Shown piece by piece: positions 39,062 through 50,019 of a stretch of 64,000 bases of DNA. Positions within the stretch are counted from its first letter, which is position 1; every line of letters begins with the position of its first letter. The notes under the pieces were generated by a model. It did no database searches. It had not been told where the DNA came from and saw only the letters and a list, made by a program, of their open reading frames with translations. The translations under genes and the position numbers were made by a program. The stretch lies in contig SUXO01000001.1 in assembly GCA_015060885.1 (NCBI GenBank), positions 62,001 through 126,000 of the forward strand. Direction: 5' to 3'. This DNA comes from Bacteroidales bacterium. GTDB lineage: Bacteria; Bacteroidota; Bacteroidia; Bacteroidales; Bacteroidaceae.

Positions 39062-42000
39062 CTATTCAAAGAAACGGAAAGTATCGTACCACTTTATCTT
39101 CTTCTTTGCAAGTTCGCTGCCCTGTTTTTCGGCAAGGCGGTACCAGCGTGCGGCGGCAAACTCGTTTTTCTTTGTTCCGCGCCCCTTTTCGTAGCAGTAT
39201 GCTACACGTTCCATTGCTTTGGGGTGCCGTTGGTTTGCAGCCTCGTGGTACCAGTGGAATGCTCTCTTACGGCTCTTTTTGACATATGTGCCCTTCTCGT
39301 GGAATTGCGCCAACTTGAACTGTGCCTCTCTGTGTCCGGCCTTTGCGGCGCGGGTGTAGTAGTCGCCGGCAGGGCTTTTGCGCATTTTTCGTTTGCTTAA
39401 TCCGGCTGCAATATCCTCCTTTTCCTTTATTTGGCCAAGTATAAAGAGGGCAACGGGCTCCTCCTGTCCGGCAGCCTTCATATACCAATTGTAAGCGACA
39501 GCGCTGTCCGGTTTCACTCCAATGCCTTTCATATAGCAGTCGGCAAGTATGGTCTGCGATGCAGCGTAACCGTTCTCGGCCGAAAGGGTGTAGTATTTTA
39601 TTGCAAGCGAGTCGTTTTTGTGCGTTCCCACTCCGTGCATATAACAGCTTGCAAGGTTGTGCAGGGCTGCCTTGTTGCCCAGGTTTGCTGCTTTGCGGAA
39701 ATTTGTGAATCCTTTGATGCTGTCCTGTTCGGTGCCCAGGCCAAGCATAATGCAGACAGCTGTGTTGAAAACCGCGTCGGGGTAGCCGAGTGCAGCAGCC
39801 TCGCTGAACAGTTTGAAGGCCTCATTATACTCTTTTTCGCGGAACAGTTTGCGCCCCTCTTCGTTTTTCAGGAAGCAGTGGGCAAGCAGTTCGGGAGTGT
39901 CTATTCCTGTTATGGGCCTGATGGTGCGTTCTGCTTCGTTCCTCTGTTTCACAAGGTCGTCTATGCGGCGTGTGAACATTGTGCTGTCGGTGCTGTAAAA
40001 TGTGCCGTCGGCATATCCCTCGACATTTACATCTATGCTCCTGGCTGTGGAGTTATTGTATAGCTCAACCTTAATTTTACCATCAATGGCTGTTGCCTGC
40101 GGAACCCACAAAAGGGTACGGCGATAGTCGCGCACGCTGCTGTCGGGGCGTAGTGTGCTGTAATCGGGGGCATAGAACTGCTTGCTTTGGGTGTAACCGT
40201 ACACAAGTGTGTAGCGGGCACTGCTGCTGTGCGACAGTTGCGGTATAAGGCTGCCGGCCCTCTCTTTTTCGCTGTTGGGTATGAAGCAGGCGACATAGTT
40301 GGGCATTTCATCGTCTTGTGCATTTTTGCTCTTCCTCTCGAAGGTTATTGCATCGGGCGCATCGTCTATATCCCAGTTTCTGGGCGGTATGCCTGTTTTT
40401 TGTGTAAACAGGTGGTAGAATGTGGAATAGTCGTAAGTCTTTATACTTTTAGTGTTTCCGCTCTGGACCCTTTTTCCGTTGTATAGTTTGCGCGTGTTTT
40501 CATCGGAGCGTATCACAATCTCCTTGAAGTCCAGCATTTTGGAAACATTCACGCCGGCGGTGTACTCTTCGTTGCTGCGTGGTATGCTGTCGGTGTGGTA
40601 TTCTCCGTCGAGAACCATACCTTGTATCCAATAACACCAGTTGAGGTTGTGCCGCCAGAATGCACTGCGCATAATGTCGACCGCGGTGAGAGTGTTGTGG
40701 TAGGCAGGGTCCTGAATGAGAAAGCTGCTCTGTCTCCTTATCTTGTTCATTCCACCAAAAACATCGACTACAATGCCATTGCCGCCGCTATTTAATCCAC
40801 CGTTGCTGCCCATAACGTACCGGTCGAACGATGAAAGAGTGGGCGCACCGAGCGAATACTCTTTTATACCATAGGGTGTGGAGTGGTCGAAAATGTGGTT
40901 TACAAAAGGGGATTCATAGTGACCGTATGAGCGGTAGCCGGTGGGGTCCCACGGGTCTATGCGGTTGGTGAGGTATGTGACATCCTGGGCATACTCCCAC
41001 TCGTCGAGGAAGTCGAGGCGCATTTCACTGCGTGGCGGGCGGTAGTTGCTGCTGCGTTTCTTTTTCGACACCACCTCGACCTGTGTGAGCAGGTATTCAA
41101 AGGGGTTTATCCTTATAATCTCCTCTCTCGCCTCTTTCAGCCTCTCCTGCGTAAGTGCTTTTCCTGTGTTGCGCTCCCAATAGTCGTACAGGCGCATGGC
41201 GGGCGAAAAATAGCGGTCGAGGTTGAATGCGAATATGCTGTCTTTGGTCGAAAGCGAGTTGAGTGCAGGGGTGAGCTTTGCCACTTTCTTACCATAGAAA
41301 TCCTTTGTGTTCAGGCGAAATTCTCCCTTTTCATCGGTCTTGAAATCATATTTGGTGACATTGCTGTCGCGGTAGGTAATCTCGAACTTTACCCTGCTGT
41401 CGGGTATGGTTGTAACAATGTATTTGTCGAGCTTGCCTATCCTGCGGTTGGGTTTCTTCTTTATGAACCTCCCGTTTACGGTTATCCCTTTTTCAATGGG
41501 CTCGGCAAGGTCGGCAAATCTGTTGCACAGTTTGCTCCAATCGTACGATGTCCAGCCGTGGGTGAGCATTACAAGGTCGAGTTCACGTATGCGGTTCCCG
41601 TTTGCGGGGTTAAAGTAGCGTGCAGCATCGGGGATGTACCCTTTTACTTCGCTGCCGAGCAGCATATAGGTGTATATGTTGTAGCTGTACGATGTTGTCA
41701 GCGGTGTGTCGGCATCGGTTACTGCGAGCGAGAAGTTGCCGCCTGTGAGGGGGGTACCATCCTCGCGTTCGATGCTCAATGTGATTTTCCCGTGCGGTGT
41801 CGCTTGCAAGTTGTCGAGCGGACGGTCATTGCTCTTCACCAACAGCCTGGCAGTGGGGCGGTCATCGACAATTGTTCCGTCGTGGGTAACGAAGAACATT
41901 CTTTCGGCAAGAGGCAAGCCTTCGCCTGCAAAGAGTATCACGCGGTTTACACCTTCGGGCAATGTGTTGCGGTCTATGGCAAAATAGACACTCTTTTCAT

Positions 42001-42988
42001 TCGATGAGAAGCGTTCGTAGAAATTGGTCTTTCCGCGGTGGACCGCAGCACAACCCAGTTCCACCGGCGATACGATGGTATTCTTCACGGAAATACCTAT
42101 GGTGCTGCTGTTGTGGTCGAGTGTTATTGCAACCCCCTCGCTCTCGGCTTCGGGGAGGCGGAATTTCTTTTTGTTGCCGTGAATGGCTGCGCTGTATTTT
42201 ACCCCTTTCTGCGGGTTCAAAAGGAATGTGCCCTTTCCCATATGTTCGGGTGTGGCGGTAAAGAGCTCGTCTCCATCGGCAAACACGGTTATGCTTTTCC
42301 CGCTGTTTATGCCGTCGGGCCCGAAGATTTCATAGGCTACACGTGTTTCCACACCTTCGAGAAGGTGTCCTCCTTCGGGGTAGAATTTGATATCCCATTC
42401 GGGCAGTTTGCCGTTCTCCCATCGCATTTTACGGTCGAGGCCTGTAACGCTGCTGTCCTTGTCGATATCGACCAGGAACGCCCTGCGTCTGTCGAGCATA
42501 TTGCGGAATGTGTAATCGCCGTTCTTCACCTTGTCGAACACGGGGAATACGCGGCTGAACACTGCATCCTTGCCGCGGTTGAGCATATATCTTGTGTAGG
42601 AACGCACCTCGTAATAACCCGACAGCAGCTGCTCGTTGAGCTCAAAGGAGCCGTCGCAGGTTCCGTTGTCGTCTATCTTGTATTTCTGTGTGCGCACCAC
42701 ATACCCTTCGGGTGCCACAAGTTCCACATACAGCACACGGCTTATAGTGGTGGGAGTGTCCTGTGTGCCGCTTGTCACGTAGGCTTTGAACCAGATGCTC
42801 TCGCCCAGGTAGTAGCTGTTATTGTCGAAATGGAGGTATACACGCTCTTCGGGGAACAGTTCCTGTTTTATAACCGACCGCACAACAAGGTTGTCGAGCG
42901 TGTTGCGCAGGGTGCTGTCCTTCTTCTCTTGTGCTGTTGCCGCCAGAGTGGCGAGCAACAGGATGTATGTAAGCAATCTCTTCATCAT
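39062..42988 (-). CDS. Large envelope protein: MG2-like and TonB-plug-like domains plus Sel1 repeats
   Basis: 1308 aa, with a signal peptide MMKRLLTYILLLATLAATAQ. The N-terminal part (about 40-160) looks like a macroglobulin MG2 domain (ERVYLHFDNNSYYLGESIWFKAYV). The middle (about 390-760) has carboxypeptidase-like beta domains and a plug-like NGGLNSGGNGIVVDVFGG stretch, as in other Bacteroidetes MG2/plug proteins. Residues about 1025-1300 are Sel1/TPR-like repeats (AAALGYPDAVFNTAVCIMLG; AAKAGHREAQFKLAQF). The mix suggests a periplasmic or outer-membrane scaffold. It is 7 bp after the M56 gene in the BlaI-type operon, so it is probably the output of that sensor. Function unknown. Confidence 0.75.
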   Translation of the reverse strand: MMKRLLTYILLLATLAATAQEKKDSTLRNTLDNLVVRSVIKQELFPEERVYLHFDNNSYYLGESIWFKAYVTSGTQDTPTTISRVLYVELVAPEGYVVRTQKYKIDDNGTCDGSFELNEQLLSGYYEVRSYTRYMLNRGKDAVFSRVFPVFDKVKNGDYTFRNMLDRRRAFLVDIDKDSSVTGLDRKMRWENGKLPEWDIKFYPEGGHLLEGVETRVAYEIFGPDGINSGKSITVFADGDELFTATPEHMGKGTFLLNPQKGVKYSAAIHGNKKKFRLPEAESEGVAITLDHNSSTIGISVKNTIVSPVELGCAAVHRGKTNFYERFSSNEKSVYFAIDRNTLPEGVNRVILFAGEGLPLAERMFFVTHDGTIVDDRPTARLLVKSNDRPLDNLQATPHGKITLSIEREDGTPLTGGNFSLAVTDADTPLTTSYSYNIYTYMLLGSEVKGYIPDAARYFNPANGNRIRELDLVMLTHGWTSYDWSKLCNRFADLAEPIEKGITVNGRFIKKKPNRRIGKLDKYIVTTIPDSRVKFEITYRDSNVTKYDFKTDEKGEFRLNTKDFYGKKVAKLTPALNSLSTKDSIFAFNLDRYFSPAMRLYDYWERNTGKALTQERLKEAREEIIRINPFEYLLTQVEVVSKKKRSSNYRPPRSEMRLDFLDEWEYAQDVTYLTNRIDPWDPTGYRSYGHYESPFVNHIFDHSTPYGIKEYSLGAPTLSSFDRYVMGSNGGLNSGGNGIVVDVFGGMNKIRRQSSFLIQDPAYHNTLTAVDIMRSAFWRHNLNWCYWIQGMVLDGEYHTDSIPRSNEEYTAGVNVSKMLDFKEIVIRSDENTRKLYNGKRVQSGNTKSIKTYDYSTFYHLFTQKTGIPPRNWDIDDAPDAITFERKSKNAQDDEMPNYVACFIPNSEKERAGSLIPQLSHSSSARYTLVYGYTQSKQFYAPDYSTLRPDSSVRDYRRTLLWVPQATAIDGKIKVELYNNSTARSIDVNVEGYADGTFYSTDSTMFTRRIDDLVKQRNEAERTIRPITGIDTPELLAHCFLKNEEGRKLFREKEYNEAFKLFSEAAALGYPDAVFNTAVCIMLGLGTEQDSIKGFTNFRKAANLGNKAALHNLASCYMHGVGTHKNDSLAIKYYTLSAENGYAASQTILADCYMKGIGVKPDSAVAYNWYMKAAGQEEPVALFILGQIKEKEDIAAGLSKRKMRKSPAGDYYTRAAKAGHREAQFKLAQFHEKGTYVKKSRKRAFHWYHEAANQRHPKAMERVAYCYEKGRGTKKNEFAAARWYRLAEKQGSELAKKKIKWYDTFRFFE

Positions 42989-42995
42989 ATTGCTG

Positions 42996-44480
42996 TCAGT
43001 TTATGGGTGTTGAACCTACAAGCATCGGTCGTCTGCTTGTCTGCTGTGTTTCTGCTTTGCCGTGCCGGTATATTATGTGTGCATCGTATATGGTGTTGGC
43101 CTTTTCACCGTCCACTATTGCCGAAGCCCACTCTTTCTGCTTTATGTACTCCTCGGCAGAGGCTATCATAGCCGAGCGTATGAGCTCTATGTTGTCGACA
43201 ATGTTTTCGTTGCTTGTATTAAGCGATATGTCGCACCCTTTTATTGCAATGTCGCCGGCTTGTCCGTTATTGTCGGCAATGAATGATGCTCTCACGCTGC
43301 ATCTCCTAATATCGCTTTTTGCGATGCCCGGTGCTGTATCATTGTCTTGCAAGTTCATATATCCGTAATATGTTTCACTTGCATACCTAATGGCTGTTAC
43401 GCTCTCTTGCGGTGTCGTAGCCTTCTCTGTTGTAGCAGGTGCTGTGGCTGTTATGGTGTCGGTTGGCTGTTGCACTGCCTTTGTGGCAACCGTGGCTCTT
43501 TTTTTCTTTTTCGTTGGTACCGGGGGCGGGGGAACGGTTGTCCGGGCTGTTACAATTGGCGCAGTTTCTTCCTTTGTATGGGTTGCCGCAACGTCGGCTG
43601 TTACCTCTTTGTAGCTGTATATATATTGTGGCTTGGCAAACAACAACAGCAACAGCGATGTTGCGGGTATAAGGTAGAGCCACTTGGCGAGCCTGGCTCT
43701 GTCCGACTCTTTGCGTGCCATCATTGTAATTCTTTTGCGCACGCTGCTCTGGCTGAACCTGTTTATGAGTTGTGTGCCCGCGTTGCTTGCCGCCTTTTTG
43801 AGTATGAGCAACTGGTAGTCGCGTGCATTGTCGCTGTGCTCCATAACATATCGGTCGGCTTCGTATTCGTGTATCTCCTTTATGTCGTTTTCGAGCATAT
43901 ATATAAATGGGTTGAACCATTGGAACGCTTTTACTGCGGCAAGCAGCAGTATGTCCAGCGAGTGGCGGTGGAGTATGTGCCCCTCTTCGTGCAGGAGAAT
44001 CTCTTTTCCACACTCGTTATAGTCGCTTTCCGAAATTACAATATGGTTGAACCAACTGAAAGGGGCAACAGTGTCGGCGTGGCAGTGTATTATGGCTTTT
44101 CCACGCTGTTCGGTCCACAGTGTTCCGCGTCTTATGGCAGTGGCGGCCTTTGTGATACCCATTGCTGTTCCCAAAAGAGTGAAAGCTACCCCGGCAAGGT
44201 ATATTGCAAGGATAATGTTTTCCCATTCTATGGCGGTTGTGGCTCCTTGAATTGCTGTTGTTGCAATGTTGGTGCCTGCAACGATGTTTGCCGGTGCTTC
44301 CATTACAACGGTAAAGTGTATTTCGGCCCACGGCAGCAGTGCCGACACTACCACCGTGCCAAGCAACAGCAGGCGGTTGAGCGATGCAAATGTCTCCTTG
44401 CGCAGCAGCAACGTGAAAGGAATGTAAAGCACCGCAAGGCAGATGGTCCATTTGATTATATATACAAGGAATGCGCTCAT
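42996..44480 (-). CDS. M56 (BlaR1/MecR1-like) membrane metallopeptidase
   Basis: 494 aa. The N-terminal 110 residues hold three hydrophobic helices, then the zinc protease motif HEEGHILHRHSLD lies near residue 160 with a distal Glu in EIHEYEADRYV, and a fourth helix follows (WLYLIPATSLLLLLF, about 265). The rest is periplasmic, with a Pro/Lys-rich linker (TTVPPPPVPTKKKKRA) and no penicillin-binding sensor domain, so it does not look like a beta-lactam receptor. By analogy with BlaR1 it should cleave or inactivate the BlaI-type repressor encoded 21 bp upstream. The signal it senses is unknown. Confidence 0.88.
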   Translation of the reverse strand: MSAFLVYIIKWTICLAVLYIPFTLLLRKETFASLNRLLLLGTVVVSALLPWAEIHFTVVMEAPANIVAGTNIATTAIQGATTAIEWENIILAIYLAGVAFTLLGTAMGITKAATAIRRGTLWTEQRGKAIIHCHADTVAPFSWFNHIVISESDYNECGKEILLHEEGHILHRHSLDILLLAAVKAFQWFNPFIYMLENDIKEIHEYEADRYVMEHSDNARDYQLLILKKAASNAGTQLINRFSQSSVRKRITMMARKESDRARLAKWLYLIPATSLLLLLFAKPQYIYSYKEVTADVAATHTKEETAPIVTARTTVPPPPVPTKKKKRATVATKAVQQPTDTITATAPATTEKATTPQESVTAIRYASETYYGYMNLQDNDTAPGIAKSDIRRCSVRASFIADNNGQAGDIAIKGCDISLNTSNENIVDNIELIRSAMIASAEEYIKQKEWASAIVDGEKANTIYDAHIIYRHGKAETQQTSRRPMLVGSTPIN

Positions 44481-44501
44481 CGCTTCTCTCTTTTTCGTGG
44501 G

Positions 44502-44879
44502 TTACTGTTTTTGTATAATTTCCAACAACTCTTTTATCTCATCCTCGCTCAACTGCTCCTTTTCGACAAAGAACTTTACCAGCGAGGAGCCCGACCCTCC
44601 GAAGAACGAATCCTTAACCTCGCTCATTACCTGGTTGGTATATTGCTCCTTGCTTACAAGGGGGTAGTAAGTGTGTGTCTTGCCGGTGAGTTTGCGGAAA
44701 TCGACAAACCCTTTGTTCAGCAGTATTTTAAGGAAAGTGGATATGGTGGTGTAGGCGGGTTTGGGCGCGGGGTAACGTGCTATGATATCGTGAATACAGC
44801 CGCCTTCGGGCAATTCCCACAGGGCGTTCATTACCTGCATTTCGGCTTTTGTAAGTGTGTCGAATTTCTTTTTGCTCAT
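44502..44879 (-). CDS. BlaI/MecI-family transcriptional repressor
   Basis: 125-aa winged-helix repressor. The N-terminal DNA-binding half (FDTLTKAEMQVMNALWELPEG; YTTISTFLKILLNKGFVDF) is followed by a dimerisation half (YPLVSKEQYTNQVMSEVKDSFFGGSGSSLVKFF) containing the region cut in relatives. First gene of the operon with the M56 peptidase and the 1308-aa protein, and probably autoregulated through the tandem dyads in its promoter. No beta-lactamase gene is near. Confidence 0.93.
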   Translation of the reverse strand: MSKKKFDTLTKAEMQVMNALWELPEGGCIHDIIARYPAPKPAYTTISTFLKILLNKGFVDFRKLTGKTHTYYPLVSKEQYTNQVMSEVKDSFFGGSGSSLVKFFVEKEQLSEDEIKELLEIIQKQ

Positions 44880-44904: not shown

Positions 44905-44952
44905 CAAATATATTACGAAGTTTTTAGAAATCTAAACTTTTAGAAATTAAAA
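44905..44952 (-). promoter_or_regulatory. Promoter of the BlaI-type operon with two putative operators
   Basis: The minus strand reads TATATTTG (44905-44912), a -7 box 26 bp before the repressor start. On the upstream side lie two related near-palindromes starting 16 bp apart: TTTAGAAATCTAAA (44923-44936) and TTTAGAAATTAAAA (44939-44952). They cover the -33 region, a good place for a repressor dimer pair. Confidence 0.5.
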
Positions 44953-45011
44953 ATGTGAAGAACGTGCTTTTTTAACTTTCATTATTAGTAATAGGGACTT
45001 GCCGACACAAA

Positions 45012-45078: not shown

Positions 45079-46641
45079 TTACATATTTATAAATATAAGT
45101 TCATTTATTACATCTTTAATTATATTATCAATTTGTTTTGAAGGAACTTTAATTCTTTTGGTTAATATGATATTGCCTACATTGATTAAATTGTTTGTAT
45201 CGCAATTTATTTTGTAAATTAAAAACTGTTTATATAGTGGAATAAAGCGATTTGGACACATTTTTTGCGCTTTAGAATAATGAAGAATGGCATTATTATA
45301 TTGATGCTGTTTTTTATATATATCACCCAATAGTAGCTCTAAATCATAATCAGCCCAGTATTTCCTACATATCAACGCTGTTTCAAGAGACCTATTATAA
45401 TCTTCATAAAGATATAATTTTACAGAATAGTTATATAGAAAATATGGGTCATTTCCAAGTATTGACATCAAAGAGTCATATTTTGATATAAATGTATCCT
45501 TTTTAGAGGTTATATAGGCGATTTTACACCATTCTTTTTCTGCAGATATTCGTTCGATTATACGATATAGTACAATTGAAGAAAGACAAAATAATATAAT
45601 GATAAATGGATATTTGATTATGTTTTTTTTGATAAAACGAAATTTATACGCATTGTGAATTAAAATATAACTATTTATCGCAATTATAATCCAAGTAAAA
45701 GGATAGTATAGTGGATAAGAAAAGGCTCCTAAAACACCTATTGTTGCAATAGAAACAAGTGCATACATTCCGATACTTGATGGTGATTTTTTATAGCAAT
45801 GTATCATAAGACCGATGAAAATACATAATATAATCAATCCGATTATTCCGAAACATATACATATTGCAAAAAAATCATTGAATACGTGTTTTACATTGTC
45901 TGCTAATAAAGAAATATTATTGTTTGAATTTTTTGTCAACCATTCTGCTTGAAAATCCATATAATGCGCAGAAATGCCATTAAAGCCATAGCCTATTATC
46001 GGGTGCTTCTTAATCATTTCCCAAGCACTGCATAGTATCAATAAACGCCCATCTGCAGAATCTTTTTTTATAAAATACATTATCGGTAAAAGGACTATAC
46101 AGAAACAGAGAAACAACCATTGTAACCACTTCCTATACTTCTTATTAAAAACCCAAACGGAGCATGGAACAAATATTCCTGCAATTATTCCCGACCGAGA
46201 TCCAGAAAGTATTAAAGCGGTGCATATAATAGCAAATAAAGAAAGCGATAATAGTTTATGGAAGTTTTTTTTACTTATTTGTATGAGGTAGAGGCAATAA
46301 GGAGTACTTATGCTTAAACATGCAGCCAAACCTGCCGGATTGTCAAATCCTCCAACAATTTGAGGTGGAGTTTTAAATTGAAATAATTGAATTATAGCAT
46401 AAATAGATTGGCAAAAACAAATAAATACCACTGCTATAATCAAATATTTTTCATATATTTTTATTTGTTTCTTTAATAATACGATAATACATCCAATCAT
46501 ATTGCCAACAGTAACAAGACCTAATGTATATAACCATTTTGTCAGTATCTGCGTATCCGTCATTTGGGAGCTATATAGGAATGTTGCAAATATAGATAGG
46601 GTTAAAAAATATAACAGTTGTATTATTTGTATAACCATCAT
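45079..46641 (-). CDS. O-antigen-ligase-like (Wzy_C) membrane protein with TPR tail
   Basis: 520 aa, AT-rich. About ten to twelve hydrophobic helices fill residues 1-380. The Wzy_C signature region DGRLLILCSAWEMIKKHPIIGYG lies near residue 197 at the start of the large periplasmic loop. The C-terminal 120 residues are soluble, with TPR-like helices (LELLLGDIYKKQHQYNNAILHYSKAQ). Such proteins join a glycan to an acceptor (LPS core, or protein in PglL-type enzymes). No glycan locus is adjacent inside the island, so the acceptor is unknown and a peptide or protein target is only a guess. Last gene of the island run, 8 bp after the ATPase gene. Confidence 0.8.
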   Translation of the reverse strand: MMVIQIIQLLYFLTLSIFATFLYSSQMTDTQILTKWLYTLGLVTVGNMIGCIIVLLKKQIKIYEKYLIIAVVFICFCQSIYAIIQLFQFKTPPQIVGGFDNPAGLAACLSISTPYCLYLIQISKKNFHKLLSLSLFAIICTALILSGSRSGIIAGIFVPCSVWVFNKKYRKWLQWLFLCFCIVLLPIMYFIKKDSADGRLLILCSAWEMIKKHPIIGYGFNGISAHYMDFQAEWLTKNSNNNISLLADNVKHVFNDFFAICICFGIIGLIILCIFIGLMIHCYKKSPSSIGMYALVSIATIGVLGAFSYPLYYPFTWIIIAINSYILIHNAYKFRFIKKNIIKYPFIIILFCLSSIVLYRIIERISAEKEWCKIAYITSKKDTFISKYDSLMSILGNDPYFLYNYSVKLYLYEDYNRSLETALICRKYWADYDLELLLGDIYKKQHQYNNAILHYSKAQKMCPNRFIPLYKQFLIYKINCDTNNLINVGNIILTKRIKVPSKQIDNIIKDVINELIFINM

Positions 46642-46649
46642 TATTGTAT

Positions 46650-47369
46650 TTATCTTAACAGCTCATTGATTATTTTATTGTAATTTAATATAAAATATTT
46701 AGTAAAACAAAATTGTTCTGTATTTTCATAGTTGGTAAGTTCCAAACCGTAGTTTGTTATTTTGTATATTTCAGCACCAGGGTATGCAAGTAAAATTGGT
46801 GAATGTGTCGCAATTATAAATTGTGAATTGTTTTTTTCTAATTCTTTTATTTTTACAATCAATTTAAAAATACTTGATAATGATAATCCTGATTCTGGTT
46901 CATCAAAAATATATAAGCCATTGCCCGATAATCTATTTAATACAACTCCAAGAAAGCCTTCTCCATGGGAACGCTTGTGGAGTGCACCACCATAATTTTT
47001 TAATAATTTAAATCCATCTGTTATTCTATCGATTTCAGTTGCGATATTATAAAAACTTTCTGCTCTTAAAAAATACCCATCTTTATTCCTAATAGTTCCT
47101 CTCGTTAATTTAATATCGCGATACAAGGTTGAGTGAGTGTTCTGTGTTTGATAGTTTAAGAACAAACTTCCCCCCTCTGGATTAAAGCCTGCACGTATCG
47201 CAATAGCTTCAATTAAAGTGGATTTACCAGTACCATTCTCACCAATAATAAAGGTCACATTATTATTGAATTCAAATTCGTTTAAGTTTCGAATTGCAGG
47301 AATATTATATGGGTATTCCAAACGTTCTGATATCTGTTTTTCGTTGGTTATCTTTTTTATGTAAATCAT
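46650..47369 (-). CDS. ABC-type AAA ATPase (COG3910-like)
   Basis: 239-aa soluble ATPase of the SMC/ABC class. Walker A is GENGTGKSTLIEAIA near residue 43, the signature region is KRSHGEGFLGVVLNRL, Walker B is GLYIFDEPESGLSLSS near residue 152, and the switch His is in FIIATHSPILLAYPG. It lacks membrane segments and coiled coils, so it is not a transporter by itself. The family is common as a stand-alone gene of unknown role; relatives with nuclease partners act in phage defence. The start overlaps the upstream small gene by 4 bp, tying it to the two small proteins. Confidence 0.9.
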   Translation of the reverse strand: MIYIKKITNEKQISERLEYPYNIPAIRNLNEFEFNNNVTFIIGENGTGKSTLIEAIAIRAGFNPEGGSLFLNYQTQNTHSTLYRDIKLTRGTIRNKDGYFLRAESFYNIATEIDRITDGFKLLKNYGGALHKRSHGEGFLGVVLNRLSGNGLYIFDEPESGLSLSSIFKLIVKIKELEKNNSQFIIATHSPILLAYPGAEIYKITNYGLELTNYENTEQFCFTKYFILNYNKIINELLR

Positions 47370-47698
47370 TCTGAGATTAAACCCTTATCAAGTAATTCCT
47401 TTTTTAGTTTATAATATAATTCTAATTCAAGTTCTTGTTCTTGAATTGTATTATTTACATCACGAATGTTGGTAGGTGTTGAAATAACACTTTCGTCTAA
47501 TGTATCAAATGCTATTGTAATAACTTCATTGAGATTTAATTTTCTGTGCTCCCAAGAATAAAAAAGTGCATTTTCGTCCATTCCGTTAATGCTGATATTA
47601 AAATCCCCTTCTTTATTCGATATTATTATTCCAAAAGACCCGGATTTTAATGCTGCATAAATATTTTCTTCTCCGGCTTTTATTATAAAACCATTCAT
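47366..47698 (-). CDS. Small island protein, paralogue of its upstream neighbour
   Basis: 110 aa, not recognised. Predicted mostly beta (FIIKAGEENIYAALKSGSFGIIIS) with a charged C-terminal helix (ELELYYKLKKELLDKGL). It shares with the next protein the MNG start, a strand-rich front, an NEVITI/GDIIKI segment, a Thr-Pro patch and the same helix ending in KGL. No signal peptide, so cytosolic. Overlaps both neighbours by 4 bp. The pattern suggests a protein pair working with the ATPase encoded behind it. Confidence 0.7.
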   Translation of the reverse strand: MNGFIIKAGEENIYAALKSGSFGIIISNKEGDFNISINGMDENALFYSWEHRKLNLNEVITIAFDTLDESVISTPTNIRDVNNTIQEQELELELYYKLKKELLDKGLISE

Positions 47699-48030
47699 AA
47701 TAATCCTTTGCTTTTTAGCGAAGTTTCTAATGCATAAAACATTTCCAATTTTGATGGTAGTGGGGTTATATTATTATCATAAACACTTTCAATTGGTGTT
47801 GTTGTATCTTTTATATTGACAAGTCTTATTTTAATAATATCTCCTTTCTCTATCAGGTTGTATTTATGCCCAATGTGTCTGATTTTATTATCATAATCAA
47901 TGCTTGCTGAATATAAAAAAGCTCCCTTTTTATTATTTGAGTTTATAGAATTTATATGTACGATCGTTTGACCGTTCTTAACTCCAATTAGAGTTCTTTT
48001 ATTATTATAAATTATTTCTATACCATTCAT
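47695..48030 (-). CDS. Small island protein, paralogue of its downstream neighbour
   Basis: 111 aa, not recognised. It starts MNGIEIIYNNKRTLIGVKNGQTIVHIN and ends SKLEMFYALETSLKSKGLL, parallel in layout to the downstream 110-aa protein, so the pair probably arose by an old tandem duplication. No hydrophobic segment and no cysteines. The stop overlaps the next start by 4 bp, and its own start overlaps the stop of the 322-codon gene, so all three are translationally coupled. Confidence 0.7.
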   Translation of the reverse strand: MNGIEIIYNNKRTLIGVKNGQTIVHINSINSNNKKGAFLYSASIDYDNKIRHIGHKYNLIEKGDIIKIRLVNIKDTTTPIESVYDNNITPLPSKLEMFYALETSLKSKGLL

Positions 48031-48974
48031 TGTTTTTTACATTTATGTGTTGAGTATGGAGGCCAATAGCCTTGTGTTAAACAGAATTGTAAGCAAATAG
48101 AGCAACCATCAATTATTTCAGAATAACAAGATTCAAATTCTTGCTGACAGTATTCGTAGTTTTCATCTGCGGTCTTATCAAATTTTTTGCATACAAGATA
48201 TTCATATAGCATCACGCCGGCTGTGTATACCATAAATCCTGTCGCAACAGCTGTGGCAGCCCCAATAACCATAATTTCATCGCCAGGTATAGGGGTCGCT
48301 ATTGCAACTAACATTGATGTAGCTAAAACCTTATGACATAATTCACCAAAGTTTTCGTTAGATTCACTTCTTGTTTTTATCAATATGTGCTGTGTGGCTG
48401 TACGAGAGGTATGTATCATCAAACCTTGACTTTCTAGATATTGAATCTCTTTCATTCCATAGTATAGTACTGATGTTACATTAAATAACCTTTCCTGTTG
48501 TATTTGTGGTACTACTTCATAAATATCTTCATTTATTTTCAATAAAACATTGTAGTATTCCTTAATTGAGGTAGTAGAGTTGCATTCGTCAATTATTCTA
48601 TTTAAGAATTCAATTTGAATTTTTGTTAAATTTTTGACTTGTTCTACAAATCTTTTTGGGCTTATGTTGTATTCATAGATAGAGCCTTTTGTTTTACAAA
48701 TATTGGGGTTCGCATTGTAAAAATCATTATAAAAATTTTCTTTAAATTCTAACGACTCGTTAGCATTTGAATAATCGACCCCTTGTTTATGTAAGTTTCT
48801 AATTGTAATATTTAATTCTTTTGCAACTCCTTGTCCTAATTGTTTTGAAGTTTCTGGCCAATTTTCTCTGTACTCAATTTGTCTAAATCTGTTAAATTCA
48901 TCTAAATCGCTGCTACAATAGCAAAAAATAATTATCGAAAGACTTAAAAAAAGTGTTAAAATTTTGATTCTCAT
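48027..48974 (-). CDS. Secreted island protein with hydrophobic Gly/Ala segment and Cys-rich tail
   Basis: 315 aa from the ATG at 48974 (MRIKILTLFLSLSIIIFCYCSSD). The earlier in-frame ATG at 48995 adds seven residues before the signal peptide and overlaps the upstream gene. An N-terminal export signal, perhaps a weak lipobox, leads into a mainly helical body. A long apolar stretch follows near residues 216-262 (MLVAIATPIPGDEIMVIGAA), and then a tail with seven cysteines (EYCQQEFESCYSEIIDGCSIC). I recognise no family. A secreted effector, toxin or carrier is conceivable from the shape alone; an ordinary envelope protein is equally possible. Confidence 0.65.
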   Translation of the reverse strand: MRIKILTLFLSLSIIIFCYCSSDLDEFNRFRQIEYRENWPETSKQLGQGVAKELNITIRNLHKQGVDYSNANESLEFKENFYNDFYNANPNICKTKGSIYEYNISPKRFVEQVKNLTKIQIEFLNRIIDECNSTTSIKEYYNVLLKINEDIYEVVPQIQQERLFNVTSVLYYGMKEIQYLESQGLMIHTSRTATQHILIKTRSESNENFGELCHKVLATSMLVAIATPIPGDEIMVIGAATAVATGFMVYTAGVMLYEYLVCKKFDKTADENYEYCQQEFESCYSEIIDGCSICLQFCLTQGYWPPYSTHKCKKQ

Positions 48975-48978
48975 AAAA

Positions 48979-50019
48979 TTATTTAACGTTTGCATTTATT
49001 GTTATTGTATATATAGGTGTATCTAAAGAGTTAGATGCTATGTGTACCTCTCTATAAATACTGCCTTTATTTTCTGGTGTGAAATCAAATTTTAATATTA
49101 TTGATTTTCCAGGGTTTATAATGTTTTTTTTTGAACTATTTATCTTTACACAACTGCAACTCGTTAGTATATCTGAAATTTTAAGAGGATGTCCCCCGTT
49201 GTTAAATATTTCAATATTCACATTGTATGTGTGGTTTATTATGCAATTGGGTAGGTTTACTATATTTGTTGATGAGGAAATCTTTGGTGCAGAATTATTA
49301 TACATAGGATTAAGGACTTTGTTTGCTATTAATAATTCATCATAATAGTAAAATATATCTGATGCAGAATCAAATTCAAGAAGTTCCTTAGCTGTTTCTC
49401 TTGCTTCTATGGTTTTATTAAAATGTATCTGATTTTCTAATTTTAAATATAAGAGATATGGGTGTTTTCTTTTTGCAAGTAATGAGTCTATACAAATATC
49501 AGCATCTTTGTTTGTATATATTTTTGATTTTAATATTAAAGCATTATTAACCATATTTATGATATCCTTTTTATCTTTTTCATAGTTTTGGTTGTAATGA
49601 AACTCAGAGGAAGTTTCTTCTGAAAGAATTGCTTTATCAATATAATAGAAACTCTCTATTGAACTTCCAGGTACTAATTCTATTAGTTGTTTATTTGTGT
49701 TGAATACACAAGTAACAGGATAAATGTGTGGGGATAATAACTTTGAGTACCATTTGTTATCGTTGTTGTAGACATTTATAAAGTTATACAAAATACTGTG
49801 GGGCAATTTTGTATGTGTTTTTATCATTTTGAGATATTCGTTTACGGTGAAATGTGTTGAGTCTATAAGTACTATGCAGAAAGGCAGGCCTGTATTATCT
49901 GACAAACTGCGAATCTCATCTATACTTTTATTATTATATGTATAAAACTTATTTTCTTCATTAATACATGAAAGTGTAAAAAGAATACTCATAAAGTAAA
50001 AAAATAAAAAATTTTTCAT
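48979..50019 (-). CDS. Lipoprotein with C-terminal DUF1573 domain
   Basis: 346 aa. Signal peptide and lipobox MKNFLFFYFMSILFTLSC predict a lipid-anchored protein. The front half (GLPFCIVLIDSTHFTVNEYL) may be a degenerate thioredoxin-like fold without a CxxC pair. The last 90 residues are an Ig-like DUF1573 domain (LKISDILTSCSCVKINSS; KGSIYREVHIASNS). In Bacteroidetes such proteins are often encoded beside exported peptides and Wzy_C proteins. First gene of the island run, with 167 bp of AT-rich DNA in front holding only a weak promoter match (TATTTTTA on the minus strand). Confidence 0.78.
   Translation of the reverse strand: MKNFLFFYFMSILFTLSCINEENKFYTYNNKSIDEIRSLSDNTGLPFCIVLIDSTHFTVNEYLKMIKTHTKLPHSILYNFINVYNNDNKWYSKLLSPHIYPVTCVFNTNKQLIELVPGSSIESFYYIDKAILSEETSSEFHYNQNYEKDKKDIINMVNNALILKSKIYTNKDADICIDSLLAKRKHPYLLYLKLENQIHFNKTIEARETAKELLEFDSASDIFYYYDELLIANKVLNPMYNNSAPKISSSTNIVNLPNCIINHTYNVNIEIFNNGGHPLKISDILTSCSCVKINSSKKNIINPGKSIILKFDFTPENKGSIYREVHIASNSLDTPIYTITINANVK

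What the first reader, a model, noticed from the sequence alone, without database searches (positions are those of the whole stretch)
39062..44879. BlaI-type repressor and M56 peptidase controlling a 1308-aa MG2/plug/Sel1 fusion
BlaI/BlaR1 pairs usually control beta-lactamases. Here the membrane peptidase lacks a penicillin-binding domain and the third gene is a large envelope protein that joins MG2-like and plug-like parts to a Sel1 repeat tail. This suggests a separate envelope-stress or nutrient circuit.
Basis: partly seen in the sequence, partly recalled or inferred. Interest (0 to 1): 0.55.

Follow-up and report, generated by a model that had tools for sequence, protein, structure and literature searches.

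The report
BlaI–M56 operon for macroglobulin–Sel1 protein
A switch related to the one that turns on beta-lactamase in Staphylococcus has, in one lineage of ruminant-gut bacteria, a TonB-like sensor and is wired to a single operon making a very large exported protein that combines an alpha-2-macroglobulin-like body with a Sel1 repeat tail; what it senses and does is untested.

Summary
The three genes are real and at the stated coordinates: BlaI (125 aa), M56 (494 aa) and a 1308-aa exported protein, same strand, gaps of 21 and 7 bp. Sel1 is confirmed (E 4e-39). MG2 is confirmed and extended: the body models as an array of macroglobulin domains like complement C3/TEP1/alpha-2-macroglobulin, without a CxEQ thioester motif. 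"Plug-like" is not supported (0/38 relatives by Pfam; profile comparison 0.1%). M56 has the BlaR1 membrane-protease core (HEEGH...E); a proline-rich linker and TonB-C-terminal-like domain replace the penicillin-binding domain, as in many related Bacteroidota receptors. In this unnamed Bacteroidaceae genus the orthologous clade has M56 directly upstream in 17/17 testable loci and BlaI in 16/16, with differing outer flanks. None of 80 sampled M56 loci elsewhere in the family, order or phylum has a macroglobulin gene nearby. Tandem dyads (CTAAN4TTAG) overlap the predicted BlaI promoter; that tandem site is unique in the available genome. Best reading: a self-contained BlaI/BlaR1-like envelope circuit with a lineage-specific single-operon output. 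Signal and activity are unknown. New variant of a known kind.

The parts
44916..44943 (-). BlaI-type operator: tandem dyads CTAAAAGTTTAG-ATTT-CTAAAAACTTCG (CTAAN4TTAG, second half imperfect)
   Evidence: Recognisable at the same promoter in 16 of 16 loci with BlaI (15 with at most 1 of 16 mismatches, one with 3); only site in 2.24 Mb own genome. Single dyad also before 17 of 43 other BlaI genes, shuffled expectation 0.8% per upstream.
44905..44912 (-). Predicted -7 element TATATTTG (Bacteroidota TAnnTTTG type), next to and downstream of the operator
   Evidence: Sequence read directly; consensus from own knowledge of Bacteroidota promoters; not a tested promoter.
44502..44879 (-). BlaI/MecI-family repressor, 125 aa
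   Evidence: Pfam PF03965 E 3.9e-29; PDB MecI 1sd6 E 3e-13.
42996..44480 (-). M56/BlaR1-type membrane metalloprotease, 494 aa: TM core with HEEGH (164-168) and E205/E207/D209, Pro/Lys-rich linker about 292-363, TonB C-terminal-like domain about 364-474, conserved C-terminal GSTPI
   Evidence: Pfam PF05569, alignment, AF2 model, Foldseek to S. aureus BlaR1 8exq (prob 1.00) and TonB CTDs (prob 0.96-0.98, E about 0.1), hhalign to TonB_C 80%.
39062..42988 (-). Exported macroglobulin-like/Sel1 fusion protein, 1308 aa: signal peptide about 1-19, MG-domain body about 45-1000, Sel1 repeats about 1050-1290, C-terminal FRFFE
   Evidence: Pfam Sel1 and MG2; AF2 body pLDDT 80.5, pTM 0.84; Foldseek top hits complement C3/TEP1/C5/A2M, E 8e-16.

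Best explanation
A self-contained signal-to-output operon. A BlaI dimer pair sits on tandem dyads over the promoter and represses blaI-m56-MG/Sel1 (inferred from anatomy). M56, a BlaR1-type membrane zinc protease with a TonB-CTD-like periplasmic domain on a proline-rich tether, detects a change in the periplasm or cell wall, cleaves BlaI and derepresses the operon (core and motifs shown by sequence and model; cleavage and signal inferred). The output is a large exported, thioester-less macroglobulin-like protein whose Sel1 tail is a helical-repeat binding platform; it probably works as a non-enzymatic scaffold or protease/peptidoglycan-binding guard in the periplasm (inferred). The receptor cassette is generic in Bacteroidota; coupling it to this output arose once in this genus.
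For: Gene order and tight spacing. M56 in 17/17 and BlaI in 16/16 testable loci of one orthologous clade, which is a single group on the tree (SH-aLRT 98-100), with different outer neighbours (proBA in four loci, other genes in the rest). Operator at the promoter in all 16, unique in the genome. BlaR1-like model and intact zinc motif (BlaR1 HEXXH...E and direct BlaI cleavage: PMC9834060). Phe at the P1' position of the BlaI cleavage site kept in all aligned trio BlaI. Macroglobulin-array fold and Sel1 tail.
Against: No expression, binding or cleavage data exist. The P1 Asn of S. aureus BlaI is Phe/Tyr here. The TonB-CTD match is weak by sequence: Pfam below threshold, hhalign 80%, Foldseek E about 0.1. 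Two further paralogues in the same genome lack BlaI/M56 and the operator, so this regulation is not needed for the family's function in general. The genome is an incomplete MAG (88.5%), so other operator sites could be missing.
Confidence: 0.6

Rival explanations
1. The operon is a beta-lactam or cell-wall-damage resistance system that keeps the classical trigger: wall fragments or acylated targets reach M56 or BlaI indirectly, and the macroglobulin-like protein protects the wall.
For: BlaI/BlaR1 homology; in Bacillus licheniformis a peptidoglycan fragment acts on BlaI (title of PMC3305447); E. coli alpha-2-macroglobulin gene is often in an operon with pbp1C (PMC4498604).
Against: No penicillin-binding sensor domain and no beta-lactamase or PBP gene in the conserved unit.
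Confidence: 0.2
2. A TonB-linked nutrient or metal circuit: the TonB-CTD-like domain of M56 touches outer-membrane receptors and reports transport status; the third gene is part of an uptake complex.
For: TonB-CTD-like domain on a proline-rich linker; an extra secreted TonB_C-related protein lies between BlaI and M56 in about half of the loci.
Against: No TonB receptor, SusD or transporter gene in the unit; no Plug domain in the third protein; outer neighbours vary.
Confidence: 0.12
3. The adjacency is historical: BlaI/M56 regulate mainly themselves and the third gene is driven independently or constitutively.
For: BlaI-M56 pairs stand alone elsewhere; paralogues do without them.
Against: 7-bp gap, and the trio keeps together while outer flanks change completely.
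Confidence: 0.08

Closest known systems
S. aureus/B. licheniformis BlaI-BlaR1 and MecI-MecR1
   Same: Winged-helix repressor, dyad operator over its own promoter, M56 membrane zinc protease with HEXXH...E
   Different: Sensor is TonB-CTD-like, not a penicillin-binding domain; output is a structural envelope protein, not a beta-lactamase or PBP2a; operator half-site CTAA/TTAG
Bacteroidota BlaI-M56(-TonB_C) pairs
   Same: Same two genes, many with TonB_C domains after the protease core, often the same CTAAN4TTAG dyad
   Different: None of 80 sampled has a macroglobulin-like gene nearby
Bacterial alpha-2-macroglobulins (E. coli YfhM/ECAM) and complement C3/TEP1
   Same: Array of macroglobulin domains, MG2 recognisable
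   Different: No CxEQ thioester motif, shorter, Sel1 tail; no pbp1C partner
Sel1-repeat proteins (HcpC, Sel1L, AlgK, MotX)
   Same: Sel1 repeats
   Different: Here a C-terminal tail on a macroglobulin-like body, seen only in this genus among those sampled

Membership tests
BlaI/MecI repressors | Penicillinase_R domain over full length | tested here: met
   PF03965 101.8 bits, cut-off 22.6; 1sd6
BlaI/MecI repressors | Scissile Asn-Phe bond (BlaI N101-F102) | tested here: inconclusive
   Phe P1' kept; P1 is Phe/Tyr
BlaI/MecI repressors | Dyad operator at own promoter | tested here: met
   16 of 16 loci by sequence; binding not testable here
BlaR1/MecR1 beta-lactam receptors | M56 protease core with HEXXH...E | tested here: met
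BlaR1/MecR1 beta-lactam receptors | C-terminal penicillin-binding sensor (SXXK) | tested here: not met
   No transpeptidase hit in 17 members; TonB-CTD-like fold instead
TonB_C domain | Significant PF03544 match | tested here: not met
   No hit in 17 M56 members; fold and profile resemblance only
Alpha-2-macroglobulins | MG-domain array | tested here: met
   MG2 below cut-off in this protein
Alpha-2-macroglobulins | CxEQ thioester | tested here: not met
   0 of 38
Sel1 repeat proteins | Sel1 repeats above cut-off | tested here: met
   132 bits, cut-off 30.7
TonB receptor plug | PF07715 match | tested here: not met

The most novel reading that the evidence does not exclude
BlaR1-type receptors with TonB-CTD-like sensors are a general, undescribed periplasmic sensing system of Bacteroidota, and this genus has coupled it to a new class of inducible envelope guard, a thioester-less macroglobulin with a Sel1 tail.
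Probability: 0.35. Interest if true: 0.7.

Novelty: new variant of a known kind. Interest (0 to 1): 0.45.

Why it matters
BlaI/BlaR1 is a textbook antibiotic-resistance switch. Here the same switch carries a different sensor and drives an envelope protein with no link to beta-lactams. The operator is unique in the genome and the output is one operon, so it is a clean place to ask what TonB-tailed M56 receptors sense, a question that concerns many Bacteroidota.

Tried and rejected
Plug domain: rejected. Trio as a widespread system: rejected, 0 of 80 sampled M56 loci outside the genus. Sel1 tail as a family-wide trait: rejected, 72 of 84 distinct genus proteins versus 0 of 33 from other genera (a first Sel1 profile was contaminated with reverse-strand translations and was rebuilt). 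NCBIfam hits MerG/MotX/AlgK/ExoR: only shared Sel1 repeats, far below cut-offs. Literature: no paper on Bacteroidota BlaI-M56-TonB circuits or this protein family found in ten searches of the open-access library; PMC12578637 was a chance word match. Standard sigma-70 and terminator scans were uninformative.

Full report
Observation. The window's minus strand carries, in order, BlaI (44502-44879), M56 (42996-44480) and a 1308-aa protein (39062-42988), with gaps of 21 and 7 bp. Domain searches confirm Penicillinase_R, Peptidase_M56 and Sel1, and a sub-threshold MG2. The start of the third protein reads as an ordinary signal peptide without a lipobox cysteine (sequence), so it is predicted to be exported. 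The convergent neighbour is proA of a proC-proB-proA run.

Organism. The window lies in a 2.24-Mb, 88.5% complete MAG. Close relatives are Bacteroidaceae MAGs from the hindgut of ruminants (sheep, goat, buffalo, deer, yak, cattle).

The third protein. AlphaFold2 on the body without the Sel1 tail, with 61 sequences, gives pLDDT 80.5 and pTM 0.84. Foldseek's best PDB matches are complement C3, TEP1, C5, CD109 and alpha-2-macroglobulin, E down to 8e-16, covering about 500-850 columns with low overall TM-scores, as expected for a flexible chain of MG domains. No CxEQ thioester motif occurs in 38 relatives. Plug is absent. The same genome has two paralogues with Sel1 tails but no BlaI/M56 next to them; in the own genome Sel1 matches occur only in these three proteins. 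Of 84 distinct complete homologues in the genus 72 have Sel1 repeats (65 with two or more), against 0 of 33 from other genera of the family, where the protein is usually 840-940 aa.

The receptor. All 17 aligned M56 proteins keep HExGH and HExEAD. The model matches S. aureus BlaR1 (8exq, prob 1.00, E 7e-7) over the membrane and protease part, and TonB C-terminal domains over the C-terminus (prob 0.96-0.98 but E about 0.1). A proline/lysine-rich, low-confidence linker joins the two. Profile comparison of the C-terminus with TonB_C domains taken from other Bacteroidota M56 loci gives 80%, and with the extra gene 94%. That extra gene, an exported TonB_C-related protein of about 380-430 aa, lies between BlaI and M56 in about half of the trio loci. 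Pfam itself gives no TonB_C hit for these M56 proteins, so this is a fold resemblance and not a family assignment.

Conservation. Protein searches of 44 genus genomes and gene maps show an orthologous clade of 18, the window included. M56 is directly upstream in 17 of 17 where the contig reaches, BlaI in 16 of 16. They form one group on a maximum-likelihood tree. Outer flanks differ: proBA in the window and three close relatives, other genes elsewhere. Outside the genus, 80 sampled M56 loci (41 family, 20 order, 19 other Bacteroidota), all but one with BlaI, have no macroglobulin homologue within the stretch fetched, usually about 6-8 kb each side but less at contig ends. The distribution supports recruitment of this output in the genus and argues against a general partnership.

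Regulation. Upstream of BlaI lies CTAAN4TTAG-N4-CTAAN4TTnG, followed at once by TATATTTG, which fits the Bacteroidota -7 consensus (own knowledge). In L092 the element is a perfect 30-bp palindrome. It is recognisable at all 16 promoters (15 with at most one mismatch of 16, L084 with three); in L090 and L091 a BspA-type LRR gene lies between it and BlaI. The 20-bp pattern, one mismatch allowed, hits only this place in the own genome. Single dyads precede 17 of 43 other BlaI genes, against 0.8% for shuffled sequence, so CTAA/TTAG is probably the usual BlaI half-site in this family. A single site implies that BlaI controls this operon alone; that is an inference from sequence in an incomplete genome.

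Mechanism. Shown by sequence or model: operon anatomy, operator, protease core, exported macroglobulin-like/Sel1 architecture, linkage. Inferred: repression, BlaI cleavage (by analogy to S. aureus, where BlaR1 cleaves BlaI directly at Asn101-Phe102, PMC9834060; here Phe-Phe or Tyr-Phe), the periplasmic signal, and a guard or scaffold role. Bacterial alpha-2-macroglobulins are thought to trap proteases through a thioester (PMC4498604); this family lacks it, so binding or scaffolding is more likely than covalent trapping.

Verdict. A real, coherent, lineage-specific module. It works like BlaI/BlaR1; it is not a beta-lactam receptor by the features tested. New variant of a known kind.

Noticed in passing
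window 45079-50019: Block of about 5 kb (Wzy_C/TPR protein, AAA ATPase, two ~110-aa proteins, a 322-aa protein, DUF1573 protein) sits between BlaI and WbqC; in L077-L079 WbqC lies directly next to BlaI. Looks like a recent insertion.
   Followed up: partly
L011:6658-9217 (G000:C62): Second BlaI-M56 pair of the genome; the 719-aa M56 has two TonB_C stretches and a plug-like segment, no CTAAN4TTAG tandem site, no macroglobulin neighbour.
   Followed up: partly
window 42996-43020 (M56 C-terminus): C-terminal GSTPI-like motif after a flexible stretch in 16 of 17 M56 proteins; possible docking peptide.
   Followed up: no
window 39062-39090 (C-terminus of 1308-aa protein): Conserved C-terminal aromatic motif Y[DN]x[FL]xFF after the Sel1 repeats in 16 of 16 trio proteins.
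   Followed up: no
window about 44960-44995 (-): Second conserved element ATTACTAATAATNAANGTTAAA upstream of the operator in most trio promoters.
   Followed up: no
L093:1019-16765, L096:1-16095: Tandem arrays of four to five macroglobulin/Sel1 paralogues without BlaI/M56; some genomes have up to 25 matches.
   Followed up: no
L097:3687-7578: The trio's third gene is split into two overlapping ORFs in G043: frameshift or assembly error.
   Followed up: no
L090:7626-9332: BspA-type LRR gene lies between operator and BlaI, apparently joined to the operon, in L090 and L091.
   Followed up: partly
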